Positions 28,955-36,030 of a DNA stretch of 64,000 bases are shown one piece after another. The stretch is from Senegalimassilia faecalis (GTDB taxonomy: Bacteria > Actinomycetota > Coriobacteriia > Coriobacteriales > Eggerthellaceae). The translations under genes and the position numbers were made by a program. Under the pieces are notes generated by a model. That model was not told where the DNA came from, did no database searches, and was given only the letters and a program-made list of their open reading frames with translations. The DNA lies in contig NZ_SDPW01000001.1 in NCBI RefSeq assembly GCF_004135645.1, positions 992,001-1,056,000 on the forward strand, given 5' to 3'. Position 1 is the stretch's first letter. The number at the start of each line of letters is the position of its first letter.

Positions 28955-29536
28955 TTAGAGGGCACTTTTGCCGTTTTTTGAAGTTGGCGGCTGCTCGCTT
29001 GCGTCTAAAGCGTTCAGAATCGATTCACGCAGGCGCTTGTTCTCCACCGTTTGCGCTTGCTGGCGCAAACGCTCGGCGGCATCGTGGTCGATAAGCGGCT
29101 TGGCTGCAGAGCGCGAGAACGCGGCCGTTGCACGCTGGGCATCTTCGCGAAACGGATGGCGCGCCTTCATGTCGAAACGAGCCGGCTTGATGGAAAATGC
29201 CTCCACGTGCTCGCCTTGGCGGTTCAAGTGCATCTTGAGCATCTCCTGGCGCGCATCAAGGTCCGAGCGAACCATCGCGTCGTCGCAATACACCACCAGA
29301 AGCGTCTTGCCCTGCGGTACGCGAGCGGCCGCCGGGTCGTTCGCTTTATCGGGGCGCATGATGTACACCGCGTTCGTGTGATCGAGGATAAGCGGCGCGG
29401 AAGGGCCGTACACCGCCTCGGTGGCCATACGCCAACGCACATGGACTTCCGCGACGCGGCGCGATTTGGCAGCCTGGGCACCCTGCTCCCCCAGGCTCTG
29501 CAAAAACTGCTGCAGCCCATCGCCCAATCGAGCCAT
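28955..29536 (-). CDS. DUF721/DciA-type helicase loader-like protein
   Basis: 193 residues. The core LQSLGEQG...VRWRMATEAVYG...VYC.DAMVRSDLDARQEMLKMHLN follows the DUF721 (DciA) pattern, with the typical WxxxxG and LL.V..D..W-like segments. The gene sits between recF and gyrB, exactly as in other actinobacteria. DciA assists loading or activity of DnaB. The C-terminal half (from about 120) is divergent and basic. Start ATG at 29536, 11 bases after recF. Confidence 0.85.
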   Translation of the reverse strand: MARLGDGLQQFLQSLGEQGAQAAKSRRVAEVHVRWRMATEAVYGPSAPLILDHTNAVYIMRPDKANDPAAARVPQGKTLLVVYCDDAMVRSDLDARQEMLKMHLNRQGEHVEAFSIKPARFDMKARHPFREDAQRATAAFSRSAAKPLIDHDAAERLRQQAQTVENKRLRESILNALDASEQPPTSKNGKSAL

Positions 29537-32136: not shown

Positions 32137-33762
32137 TTATGCTTCGCGGATGATCTGCTGCAGTGCCTCGATTTCTTCTCTGAGCAATCGGTTTTCCTTC
32201 AGCTTCGTTTCGATCATGGTCACGGAATACAACGCGGTCGAGTGGTCGCGGTTGAATTTCTTCCCGATGCTCTCGTAAGGCATGTCAAGCAGCTGCCTGC
32301 ACAGATACATGGCAATCTGGCGGGCGTTCGTGATGCTGCGGCTGCGCCTTTTGCCGACGATTTCGGTGTGGCTGACTTTGTAGAAGCCTTCCACGGCTTT
32401 TTGGATGTCCTCGGCGTTCAGGCGTTTGCTCGGTCCGCCTGAGAAGTGGTTTTCCAGCAGCGCCCGCACATCGGCCAGCGTCATGTTCGGCTGGTTTCCG
32501 TACGTCATCTGAAAGATGACTTTCGTCACGGCGCTTTTCAGCTCGCGGATGTTCGAGCTGGAACTCTCGGCGATATACGTTTGTATGTCGGCGGGCATGG
32601 TGAACGCCATGGAGCCTTCTTGTTCCTGGTATTCGCGGATAAAGCTTTTCACGATGCCCAGTTTCGTTTCGATTTCAGGCGGTTGGATGTCGAACGTGCC
32701 GCCGGAATTGAAACGCGTTTTGTAACGTTCGTCGATGTCGATATTCTTCGGCGCGCGGTCGGCCGACAGGACAACCTGCCTTCCCTGGCTAGTCAGCTTG
32801 TTGAAGATCTGGAACATGATGTCGAGCGTTTGCTTTTTGCCTTGCAGGTACTGCACGTCGTCCACCAGCAGAACGTCGGCGTCTTCGTATGACGCCTTGA
32901 AGTTCTTGTAGCTGGATTTTTCGGTGTCGTGCGCCGCCGATGCCTCGGTGTAGTCGTCGAGCAACTCGGCCGAGTCCTTGTAGACCACCTGCAGCTGCGG
33001 CATGTTGCGGTTGATGTAATTCTGGATAGCGCGCAGCAAATGCGTTTTGCCCAGGCCCGATTTGCCGTAGATGAACAAAGGGTTCAAGTGCGGCTTGCCT
33101 GGCGCTTCAGCCACTGCCGTTGCCATGGAGTAGGCCAGGCGGTTCGAATCGCCGATGACGAAGTTCTCGAACGTGAGGGTGGAAAGCGGCGTGGAGTTGT
33201 CCGATTCCGGTGCTTCGGCGTGCTCTTCCGTGGCAGGTTGCTCCTGGGTTTGGTCGCTTGTTTCTTTTGGCTGCTCTGGTGTGCTGGCTGCTGCCGGCAT
33301 TGGTGCTGTTGGAACAGACGTGGCATCCGGCTGCCGTGAAGCCTGAGAGACGGGTGCCGGTGTCGGGGCCGCTTCCGCCGAGGGCGTCGGCGGTGCGGCA
33401 ACGGCGCGCGCGGGAGCGCTTTGCGGCGCCGGTGCTGTAGGCGGGGCAGGTGCCGCCGTCGGGACGGCAGGTGCTGCGGGGGCTGCGGGAGCTGCCGTTT
33501 GGGTGGGGTCGACTTCGATGATGACGGTGAACGGCACGCCGCGCAGCTCTTCAAGCGCGCGCTTGATGTAGTCGATGTAGTTGCGCTCGATCCACGTTTT
33601 GATGAAATCCGTGTTCGCCGTCAGCATGATGAAGCCGTCGCTGGCAGCTTGGGGATGCAACATGGAGAAGAACGCGTCGATCTGCGAGGGGACGATGCCC
33701 TCGTAACCCTTGACGCGGCTGCACACCTCCGCCCAGATCTGCTGAATTTCCTCGCTGTTCAT
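32137..33762 (-). CDS. dnaA: Chromosomal replication initiator DnaA
   Basis: 541 residues. Domain I at 1-85; domain II is a long Pro/Ala/Gln-rich linker (about 88-195). Domain III has Walker A YGKSGLGKTHLL, Walker B VLLVDDVQ and sensor motifs. Domain IV has SITNARQIAMYLCRQLLD and the DNA-binding signature KKFNRDHSTAL (Asn where most have Gly). Starts 56 bases after the GHKL-ATPase gene with no terminator between, so probably in one transcription unit with it. The matching boxes in the origin read TTTTCCACA. Confidence 0.98.
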   Translation of the reverse strand: MNSEEIQQIWAEVCSRVKGYEGIVPSQIDAFFSMLHPQAASDGFIMLTANTDFIKTWIERNYIDYIKRALEELRGVPFTVIIEVDPTQTAAPAAPAAPAVPTAAPAPPTAPAPQSAPARAVAAPPTPSAEAAPTPAPVSQASRQPDATSVPTAPMPAAASTPEQPKETSDQTQEQPATEEHAEAPESDNSTPLSTLTFENFVIGDSNRLAYSMATAVAEAPGKPHLNPLFIYGKSGLGKTHLLRAIQNYINRNMPQLQVVYKDSAELLDDYTEASAAHDTEKSSYKNFKASYEDADVLLVDDVQYLQGKKQTLDIMFQIFNKLTSQGRQVVLSADRAPKNIDIDERYKTRFNSGGTFDIQPPEIETKLGIVKSFIREYQEQEGSMAFTMPADIQTYIAESSSSNIRELKSAVTKVIFQMTYGNQPNMTLADVRALLENHFSGGPSKRLNAEDIQKAVEGFYKVSHTEIVGKRRSRSITNARQIAMYLCRQLLDMPYESIGKKFNRDHSTALYSVTMIETKLKENRLLREEIEALQQIIREA

Positions 33763-33818
33763 ATGGTGTTCCCTGTCGCTTTCGCTGTGTGAGCCTTCGT
33801 TCGTCTATGGCGCTGCGG

Positions 33819-34940
33819 TTACAGCTGCTGCGCCATTTGCCTGCCGACGGCGGTGAGCTGGCGGCGCTTATCGCGCGTCTTCTCCAAGACACCTTCGCCT
33901 TCAAGCTTCGTGAGCACGTTGTAAACGCTTGACTGCGCAACACCGGTCAGCGCCACCAAATCGGTCACGCGCAAGGCTCCCTCGTGGAGAAACACGTTGA
34001 GGAAATCCCGCTCGCGCTGGTTGAGGGCTGCCAGGCTAGGGCCGGCGTTGAACGTTGCAGGCTGCGCTTGCTGCGCGTTTTGCGCATAAGGATAAGGGGC
34101 TGCTTGCTGGTATGCGTTGCCATAGCCTGGCGCCGCCGCGCCGTAAGGTTGTTGCGGTGCGTAACCTTGTGTTGCGGGATAAGGCTGCTGCGGTTGGGCG
34201 ACGCCTTGAGCCGGATAGGCCGGCGCCTGCATGGGCGCTTGCTGCGCGTATGCAGGCTGCGGTATTTGGTTTGCTGGCGCATAGGGTTCCGGCGCGACGT
34301 TGTATCGCGGAGCTGCAATAGACTCTGGCGCCTCGTCGCCGCTTGCGATGTGGTATCGCGGCGCAGGCGCGGCTTCGGAGGCCTCGCTTTCGAGCTTCAG
34401 CTCTTCAGGAAGCTCCGGTTTGCTGCCGTTCGCGCTGATGGTGACCACCGAGCCGCTACCTAGGTTGTCTTCGATCGTTATGGTGCCGTGAGTGAAGTCG
34501 AGGTACTCCTTCACGATGGGCAACCCCGACCCTACTCCTCTGATGTAGCTTTTCATGGGCTCGATTGCCGAGGTGAATCCGGGAAGCTGCGCGCGGTCTT
34601 TGCACGCGATGCCCGGGCCCTGGTCGGCGAACCGGATGGTGCAGCCGTTGTCGAGAATGGATACGGTTGCTTCTTGGAAACGCGCGTGGATGAAGTTTTC
34701 CGACACCTCGCGGATGACGGTGTAAGGAATGGTTCCGCCTGCCGCTTTCGACTGTTGATAAACGCTTGTGGCAAGGTTCTCGATGAACTCTGCGGTGGGC
34801 GCCGGCTGGATCTCGGTTACGTGCGGCGCGCTGAGCAGGTCGTCGTATAGCGCGATGCGCGCGATCGAATTCACGTGCGTGAAATCAAAAGGCTCCTCGT
34901 TGTTCTCGGGTCCTTCGTGAGTCTGGTTTTGCTGGTCCAT
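33819..34940 (-). CDS. GHKL ATPase / winged-helix fusion protein next to dnaA
   Basis: 373 residues in three parts. At about 55-170 is a histidine-kinase-type ATP-binding fold with N-box REVSENFIHA, G1 box DQGPGIA and G2 box GVGSGLPIVKEYLD; no His-phosphorylation domain is present. At 180-305 there is a Pro/Gln/Ala/Tyr-rich linker. At about 310-373 is a winged helix (FLNVFLHEGALRVTDLVAL, SSVYNVLTKLEGEGVL). It resembles anti-sigma-type ATPases joined to a MarR/TrmB-like DNA-binding domain. The start is uncertain: ATG at 34940 lacks a good ribosome site; in-frame GTG/TTG codons at 34955 and 34964 overlap a DnaA box. Placed between the DnaA-box cluster and dnaA, it could regulate initiation (inference). 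Confidence 0.8.
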   Translation of the reverse strand: MDQQNQTHEGPENNEEPFDFTHVNSIARIALYDDLLSAPHVTEIQPAPTAEFIENLATSVYQQSKAAGGTIPYTVIREVSENFIHARFQEATVSILDNGCTIRFADQGPGIACKDRAQLPGFTSAIEPMKSYIRGVGSGLPIVKEYLDFTHGTITIEDNLGSGSVVTISANGSKPELPEELKLESEASEAAPAPRYHIASGDEAPESIAAPRYNVAPEPYAPANQIPQPAYAQQAPMQAPAYPAQGVAQPQQPYPATQGYAPQQPYGAAAPGYGNAYQQAAPYPYAQNAQQAQPATFNAGPSLAALNQRERDFLNVFLHEGALRVTDLVALTGVAQSSVYNVLTKLEGEGVLEKTRDKRRQLTAVGRQMAQQL

Positions 34941-35832
34941 CTGCGCTTTTACCACTTTCCACAACGTCGTTTTCCAAAGTTTTACACATTTTCGGGAAAA
35001 TTCTTTAAAAAGTGTACCTTCTTTCGTTTCAAGATTCTATTCATCTGGGGAAATTCCTGAATCCATTGTGGAAAAACCACGAATGCTTGAAAGTTTTTCA
35101 CTGTTAGCCACCTCGTGTTTTCGAAGTTTTCCACTTTTCATTCATCAATTGTGGAAAACAGCATTGAAAACCGTGAATTCCAGTGAATTCCTTTCGGTGG
35201 AATTCGATTCTTGTTGTTGAAAGATAGGGTGGAAAAGCCAGATTCCCCTTGATTTTTTCTCACCGCTTTCGGTTCGTCGTTTTCCTCCGTTGTTTCCACA
35301 AGAGGCGGATGGTTTCACGAACAGGAAAGGAGAAGAACTTCTGCAGTGTTTATAAAATGCCTGTTCAAATGGTTGCAAGACTTCTTTTACCTGATGACAA
35401 CGGCTGAACAAGGATGTGGCGAAAAGCGCTCTTCGGCTCTCCCTGACCACTTCTTCTCAGTGTTTTCCACACCGGTTTTCAGGCTGTTCCGAAGTTTTCA
35501 ACATTTTCCACAACGGATTCCGCTACCCACGCTTTCCTTCTTTGCGCGCGGAAACGCTTCGATGATGAAAAACCTCTCTTGTTGCTTGATTTCCCCTTCT
35601 TACCATCTTGGCAGGCACTTGCCTTGTGCGTTGCGGGATTGCTTTTCCACCGCTCTCTGCCCCTGGCGCAGAGACGAGGTTTTTCCGCCGCTTGGCCTTG
35701 GCACCGTTGTGCAGTTTTCCACTACGCTGCACCCTAGCGTTCTTCGGTTGTTGGAAAGCAACCTGTTTCCGCAGGTGGGCTTTCATGATATGGTCATCTT
35801 GTGCACACGTTGCCATATAGAGGTAAAAACCT
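34941..35832. other. Origin of replication (oriC) with DnaA-box cluster
   Basis: Gene-free region of about 0.9 kb between the GHKL gene and rpmH. TTTTCCACA or one-base variants occur at 34955-34963 (+), 35067-35075 (-), 35127-35135 (+), 35150-35158 (-), 35228-35236 (-), 35292-35300 (+), 35463-35471 (+), 35504-35512 (+), 35643-35651 (+) and 35715-35723 (+). Four are exact (35067, 35150, 35463, 35504). Gene orientation switches here, minus to the left and plus to the right. A 176-codon open frame at 35346-35876 overlaps the boxes and is not believable. Established for DnaA: the usual box is TTATCCACA; this organism seems to use T at position 3. Confidence 0.88.
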
Positions 35833-35895: not shown

Positions 35896-36030
35896 ATGAA
35901 GCGCACCTATCAACCTAACACTCGTAAGCGTGCCAAGTGCCACGGCTTCCGTGCCCGCATGGCAACCAAGGGCGGCCGCAAGGTTCTGGCTGCTCGTCGT
36001 GCTAAGGGCCGTAAGCGTCTTTGCGTGTAA
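35896..36030 (+). CDS. rpmH: 50S ribosomal protein L34
   Basis: 44 residues, [18 protein letters not shown] start and [16 protein letters not shown] end: a standard L34. First gene of the rpmH-rnpA-yidD-yidC-jag-rsmG block that marks the right side of the origin. Confidence 0.98.

What the first reader, a model, noticed from the sequence alone, without database searches (positions are those of the whole stretch)
33819..34963. GHKL ATPase-winged helix protein between oriC and dnaA
A histidine-kinase-like ATP-binding fold without phosphorylation domain is linked by a Pro/Gln/Ala/Tyr-rich stretch to a winged helix and encoded directly upstream of dnaA, with 56 bases and no terminator in between. 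A DnaA box (34955-34963) overlaps its possible start codons. Position and architecture suggest a nucleotide-sensing regulator of initiation or of dnaA expression. I know no described role for such a protein at this locus.
Basis: partly seen in the sequence, partly recalled or inferred. Interest (0 to 1): 0.75.

Follow-up and report, generated by a model that had tools for sequence, protein, structure and literature searches.

The report
Putative ATP-sensing regulator beside oriC
Across a large, old part of the Actinomycetota, the gene for a protein that joins an ATP-binding domain to a DNA-binding domain is fixed between the replication origin and dnaA, the gene for the replication initiator; its function is unstudied, and it is a strong candidate for linking cell energy status to the start of chromosome replication.

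Summary
Window 33819-34940 (minus; ATG at 34940) encodes a 373-aa protein with an intact GHKL (Bergerat) ATP site, a disordered Pro/Gln/Ala-rich linker and a C-terminal winged helix. It ends 56 bp before dnaA; all four perfect DnaA boxes of the 64-kb window lie just upstream. Relatives occur in 264 of 296 sampled genomes of the class and in at least 18 further families of the phylum. Every member with enough contig lies next to oriC/dnaA: about 136 of 138 directly upstream of dnaA on the same strand, two across oriC from it. The oriC-GHKL-dnaA block has inverted as a unit several times. The ATP-site residues (N-box Glu, unlike histidine kinases) are invariant, and the GHKL core is more conserved than DnaA domains III-IV. 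No described role was found in the literature searched. Most likely it is a nucleotide-switched DNA-binding regulator of the GHKL-dnaA operon and/or of initiation; that function is inferred, not shown. The DnaA box at 34955-34963 is not conserved.

The parts
33819..34940 (-). GHKL-winged helix gene, 373 aa (alternative TTG start at 34964 unlikely)
34422..34883 (-). GHKL (Bergerat) ATPase domain, residues ~20-173
   Evidence: Pfam HATPase_c; AF2; 3LMM Z 13.8-14.2
34683..34712 (-). N box REVSENFIHA (Glu78, Asn82, His85)
   Evidence: invariant in 54 aligned relatives; E, N, H 100% in 48 phylum-wide members
34608..34625 (-). G1 box DQGPGI
34518..34538 (-). G2 box GVGSGLP
34047..34421 (-). disordered Pro/Gln/Ala/Tyr-rich linker, variable between relatives (whole protein ~250-430 aa)
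   Evidence: pLDDT <50; protein lengths
33822..34046 (-). winged helix, residues ~299-373
33763..33818 (.). 56-bp gap between the gene and dnaA, no terminator or promoter match
32137..33762 (-). dnaA
   Evidence: Bac_DnaA 3e-50, Bac_DnaA_C, DnaA_N
35114..35167 (-). oriC core: ~50-bp dyad GTTTTCCACA...TGAAT...GTGGAAAAC, conserved upstream of the gene
   Evidence: EM motif in 66 of 69 dereplicated loci; window score 52 versus <=-3.8 in genic background
35067..35512 (.). span of the four perfect DnaA boxes TTTTCCACA (35067, 35150, 35463, 35504)
35011..35016 (-). putative -10 (TACACT; family consensus GAAAAAnGnTACAAT) of the GHKL-dnaA operon
   Evidence: EM motif in nearly all loci, score 236 versus 49 in shuffles; alignment
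34955..34963 (+). DnaA-box-like CTTTCCACA about 15 bp upstream of the ATG; not conserved
35896..36030 (+). rpmH, divergent flank of oriC

Best explanation
It is a vertically inherited, usually single-copy, nucleotide-binding DNA-binding regulator of chromosome initiation. Shown here: the gene is fixed between oriC and dnaA, probably in one transcript with dnaA, and has an intact GHKL ATP site and a winged helix. Inferred: ATP or ADP binding to the GHKL domain, whose N-box Glu is of the kind used by GyrB/MutL/Hsp90 and SpoIIAB, changes its dimer state or conformation. This positions two winged helices, on flexible linkers, on DNA in the adjacent oriC/promoter region. There it adjusts transcription of its own operon (and so DnaA supply) and may also help or hinder DnaA assembly at the oriC core about 170 bp upstream of its start. 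The outcome would be coupling of adenine-nucleotide status to initiation. Whether it represses or activates is not known.
For: Location: about 136 of 138 testable distinct members lie directly upstream of dnaA on the same strand, the other two across oriC from it, none elsewhere. Linkage survives rearrangement: the oriC-GHKL-dnaA block flips as a unit (up to 5 changes on the tree, at least 2 forced by supported branches); two further lineages separated GHKL from dnaA but kept it ~205 bp from the oriC core. Constraint: GHKL core mean identity 0.709 versus 0.648 for DnaA III-IV in the same 68 genomes; distances track DnaA (Mantel r 0.78, 0 of 999 permutations). ATP-site Glu, Asn, Asp and glycines 98-100% in 48 members across the phylum. 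Winged helix 300-373 resembles MarR, MntR and Csa3 (Z 12-13). Conserved -10-like element between oriC core and gene; no terminator match before dnaA. One match per genome in nearly all class genomes.
Against: No direct evidence for ATP binding, DNA binding or any effect on initiation. rpmH, rnpA and yidC are also conserved here without known initiation roles. No operator other than DnaA-box-like material and the -10 element was found in the gene's own upstream region. The gene is absent, with dnaA kept, in a few genomes (G217, G266, family f13, G123), so it is dispensable in some lineages. Winged-helix identity is only 0.435.
Confidence: 0.6

Rival explanations
1. It is a protein serine kinase of the SpoIIAB/RsbW type: the GHKL domain phosphorylates or sequesters a partner (DnaA itself, or a regulator), and the winged helix only tethers it near oriC.
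For: GHKL fold like SpoIIAB (Z ~10); invariant N-box Glu, the base used by SpoIIAB-type kinases (role from established knowledge).
Against: SpoIIAB/RsbW proteins have no winged helix and sit beside STAS or sigma genes; the neighbours identified in 40 wide loci are parAB, rsmG, yidC, rpmH, dnaA, dnaN, recF, gyrB.
Confidence: 0.15
2. A nucleotide-sensing transcription factor whose main targets lie elsewhere in the genome; it stays beside dnaA only because the origin region rarely rearranges or because high gene dosage near oriC suits it.
For: rpmH-rnpA-yidC-parAB are conserved around oriC without being initiation factors; no own operator found next to the gene.
Against: The gene stays with oriC (and nearly always dnaA) through inversions that broke the dnaA-dnaN and oriC-rpmH neighbourhoods; no unlinked copy among 143 members.
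Confidence: 0.2
3. A histidine kinase fragment or ordinary two-component kinase.
For: HATPase_c is the best Pfam hit, and histidine-kinase catalytic domains top Foldseek.
Against: No DHp/HisKA domain; N box carries Glu where histidine kinases carry Asn/His; no response regulator among the neighbours identified; fused to a winged helix.
Confidence: 0.03

Closest known systems
DIP2311 of Corynebacterium diphtheriae (PDB 3LMM), AlbA_2 / GHKL proteins, as I recall of the COG2865 type
   Same: Nearest solved structure to the GHKL domain by a clear margin (Z 13.8, 166 aligned, 4.0 A, next 10.2). From memory, that family also pairs a GHKL-like domain with a C-terminal winged helix.
   Different: No AlbA_2 domain here and no Pfam HATPase_c_4 hit; sequence identity 13-16%; no known link of DIP2311 to oriC, and its function is, to my knowledge, unstudied.
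NifL (nucleotide-sensing GHKL domain without phosphotransfer; PDB 9QQ6)
   Same: Works-like analogue: known (established knowledge) as a GHKL domain that senses ADP/ATP to control a regulator without phosphorylation; appears in the Foldseek list.
   Different: NifL has PAS domains and acts on NifA by protein contact; no winged helix; unrelated context.
SpoIIAB / RsbW anti-sigma serine kinases
   Same: GHKL fold (Z ~10) and Glu-type N box.
   Different: Stand-alone domain with partner sigma/STAS genes; none here.
MarR/TrmB/IclR/MntR winged-helix regulators
   Same: C-terminal winged helix by sequence (HTH_IclR above cut-off) and fold.
   Different: The effector/dimer domains of those families are absent; the GHKL domain takes their place.

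Membership tests
GHKL (Bergerat) ATPase superfamily | N box, G1 (DxGxG) and G2 (GxGxG) motifs on the Bergerat fold | tested here: met
   HATPase_c above cut-off; motifs invariant; fold
GHKL (Bergerat) ATPase superfamily | binds and/or hydrolyses ATP | not testable with these tools
   residues intact only
Two-component histidine kinase | DHp/HisKA domain with a phospho-accepting His | tested here: not met
   no such Pfam hit in the protein or among the families listed for the 54 relatives
Two-component histidine kinase | N box with Asn/His at the first position rather than Glu | tested here: not met
   Glu in all 48 phylum-wide members
SpoIIAB/RsbW anti-sigma kinases | stand-alone GHKL domain encoded with STAS and sigma-factor partners | tested here: not met
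   winged-helix fusion; genes identified around 40 wide loci are the oriC set
AlbA_2/HATPase_c_4 (DIP2311) proteins | AlbA_2 domain N-terminal to the GHKL domain | tested here: not met
   no Pfam AlbA_2 or HATPase_c_4 hit at E<=1
AlbA_2/HATPase_c_4 (DIP2311) proteins | GHKL fold of that subtype | tested here: met
   3LMM Z 13.8-14.2, above all other GHKL chains shown
MarR/IclR/TrmB winged helix | winged helix-turn-helix domain | tested here: met
   HTH_IclR 6e-6 above cut-off; Z 12-13
MarR/IclR/TrmB winged helix | sequence-specific DNA binding as a dimer | not testable with these tools
   no own operator identified; experiment needed
oriC-linked initiation regulator (works-like class) | gene fixed at oriC/dnaA across the clade | tested here: met
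oriC-linked initiation regulator (works-like class) | alters initiation or dnaA expression | not testable with these tools
   needs genetics or biochemistry

The most novel reading that the evidence does not exclude
An ancestral actinobacterial initiation regulator of a new class: an ATP/ADP-switched GHKL-winged helix protein that acts directly on the oriC core to license or restrain DnaA, fixed beside oriC since early in the phylum and later lost in some lineages.
Probability: 0.3. Interest if true: 0.92.

Novelty: new variant of a known kind. Interest (0 to 1): 0.74.

Why it matters
How initiation is controlled outside E. coli, Bacillus and Caulobacter is poorly known, and the link between energy status and initiation is an open question. 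A gene fixed between oriC and dnaA in an old part of a major phylum, whose ATPase core is more conserved than DnaA itself, with an intact nucleotide site and a DNA-binding domain, gives a directly testable candidate. Two members can be named because contig lengths equal genome lengths that I recall from memory: Eggerthella lenta DSM 2243 (3,632,260 bp, gene near base 88) and Rubrobacter xylanophilus DSM 9941 (3,225,748 bp, gene at the end of the sequence just before dnaA).

Tried and rejected
(1) GHKL's own operator: the strong dyad first looked like one, but outside Eggerthellales the same place carries three DnaA boxes, and G217, which lost most of the gene, keeps the dyad; it is read as the oriC core. 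(2) DnaA box at the start codon: not conserved. (3) Mobile origin: no full-length relative in plasmids, phages or viral contigs; only partial matches, several annotated as sensor kinases. (4) Absence in class genomes: 9 of 17 checked also lack a DnaA domain hit, so those look like assembly gaps. (5) Range outside Actinomycetota could not be tested: only G handles are accepted as a search centre, and the genome-contig scan used patterns specific to close relatives. (6) Literature: no paper found that links a GHKL protein to dnaA; open-access papers only.

Full report
OBSERVATION. The ORF lies at 33819-34964 on the minus strand. The ATG at 34940 is the likely start, giving 373 aa; the extra codons from the TTG at 34964 are not seen in relatives. 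Pfam finds HATPase_c (3.7e-9) at the N-terminal side and a winged helix (HTH_IclR 6e-6, TrmB, MarR) at the C-terminus. AlphaFold2 gives two confident domains, residues ~20-170 and 300-373, joined by a disordered linker. The gene ends 56 bp before dnaA, and the consensus scan finds no terminator or promoter there. oriC lies on its other side: all four perfect TTWTCCACA boxes of the 64-kb window are at 35067-35512.

CONSERVATION. Relatives were found by sequence alone, not by position: in 74 of 80 close genomes at E<=0.001 (the weakest of these are other kinases), 76 named loci, 264 of 296 genomes of the class at E<=1e-20 and 119 of 296 of the phylum sample at E<=1e-12, the latter including at least 18 families outside the class. 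Nine of 17 class genomes without a hit that were checked also lack a DnaA domain hit, so they look like assembly gaps. In 40 wide loci from the class and phylum sample the order parB-parA-rsmG-yidC-rnpA-rpmH / GHKL-dnaA-dnaN-recF-gyrB holds wherever the contig reaches and the gene is detectable. Of 143 distinct proteins, 133 are followed by dnaA on the same strand, 2 face away from dnaA across oriC, and 8 end near a contig end. Two of those eight (G501, G394) lie at the very end of single-contig chromosomes that begin with dnaA, and so does a further member, G360; they too are adjacent. That makes about 136 of 138 testable members. No member was found anywhere else.

REARRANGEMENTS. In Adlercreutzia, Enteroscipio, Raoultibacter and rumen relatives the block oriC-GHKL-dnaA is inverted between rpmH and dnaN. 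On a DnaA tree the arrangement changes 7 times; the inverted state takes up to 5 changes, at least 2 forced by supported branches. In two unrelated lineages (L064, L084/L029) GHKL and oriC have flipped away from dnaA, but GHKL keeps its ~205-bp spacing from the oriC core. So the tightest link is to oriC, the next to dnaA.

THE ORIGIN CORE. EM on the upstream DNA found, in 66 of 69 dereplicated Eggerthellales loci, a ~50-bp dyad: TTTTCAnnGTTTTCCAC[AT]TTTnnTGAATAAAATGTTGAAAACTnTGAAAA. It ends 60-195 bp (mode 156) from the gene start; in the window it is 35114-35167. Outside Eggerthellales the same position and orientation often carries three DnaA boxes, TTTTCCACAnnTGTGGAAAgTnnTGTGGATAACT. I therefore read it as the oriC core, not as an operator of this protein. 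Between core and gene a -10-like GAAAAAnGnTACAAT is conserved (EM score 236 versus 49 in shuffles), which fits a promoter for a GHKL-dnaA transcript.

THE PROTEIN. In 48 members spanning the phylum the N-box Glu and Asn, the following His, and the Asp and glycines of G1 and G2 are 98-100% conserved. A Glu at the first N-box position is the arrangement of GyrB/MutL/Hsp90 and SpoIIAB/PDK, not of histidine kinases (established knowledge). No DHp domain was found. The nearest solved structure to the GHKL domain is DIP2311 (3LMM), Z 13.8 against 10.2 for the next, at only 13% identity. The GHKL core (mean identity 0.709) is more conserved than DnaA domains III-IV (0.648) in the same genomes, the winged helix less (0.435); distances track DnaA (Mantel r 0.78, 0 of 999 permutations). 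This fits vertical inheritance under strong constraint.

LOSSES. A few genomes have dnaA and the flanks but no GHKL gene: G217, G266, four of family f13, G123, and several other actinobacterial families. G217 keeps an N-terminal remnant between oriC core and dnaA (57% over 81 codons, E 1e-23, of which about 50 lie within the gene), so that loss is secondary. The gene is therefore not indispensable everywhere.

MECHANISM. Shown: position, architecture, intact ATP site, constraint. Probable: shared transcript with dnaA. Inferred: nucleotide-dependent dimer or conformation change of the GHKL domain that sets winged-helix binding in the oriC/promoter region, adjusting dnaA expression and/or DnaA assembly. 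I put this at 0.6, split between operon control and direct origin action, which the data do not separate. Rivals are a SpoIIAB-like serine kinase acting on a partner (0.15) and a general regulator that merely stays near oriC (0.2); rpmH, rnpA and yidC show that conserved neighbourhood alone does not prove an initiation role.

NOVELTY. Both domains are known kinds; their combination as an oriC-dnaA fixture is not described in any paper found (open-access library only). Plasmid, phage and viral collections gave no full-length relative. Range beyond the phylum could not be tested.

Noticed in passing
35114-35167 and matching loci: In Eggerthellales the middle DnaA box of the actinobacterial oriC core is replaced by a nearly invariant TGAAT(AA) at the centre of a 50-bp dyad: a lineage-specific origin core worth its own study.
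   Followed up: partly
window 3345-61374 (11 sites, e.g. 32096, 37488, 38350): Eleven perfect parS-like sites GTTTCACGTGAAAC around oriC (0.01 expected by chance).
   Followed up: no
window about 35765-35780; many loci upstream of GHKL: Motif [CG]ACCTGCGGTTTT is enriched in oriC intergenic regions (ACCTGCG in 36 of 72 loci versus 2 expected), often ~80-105 bp before the GHKL gene near the putative promoter; binder unknown.
   Followed up: partly
L036-L042, L044, L047, L049-L052 and others versus window: The whole oriC-GHKL-dnaA block is inverted between rpmH and dnaN in several Eggerthellaceae lineages.
   Followed up: yes
28955-29536 (-): 193-aa ORF between recF and gyrB, the place where DciA-type (DUF721) proteins are often found (from memory), but with no Pfam hit.
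   Followed up: no
L225 5858-6100 (genome G217): Remnant of the GHKL gene N-terminus between oriC core and dnaA: gene loss in one genome of a genus where others keep it.
   Followed up: partly
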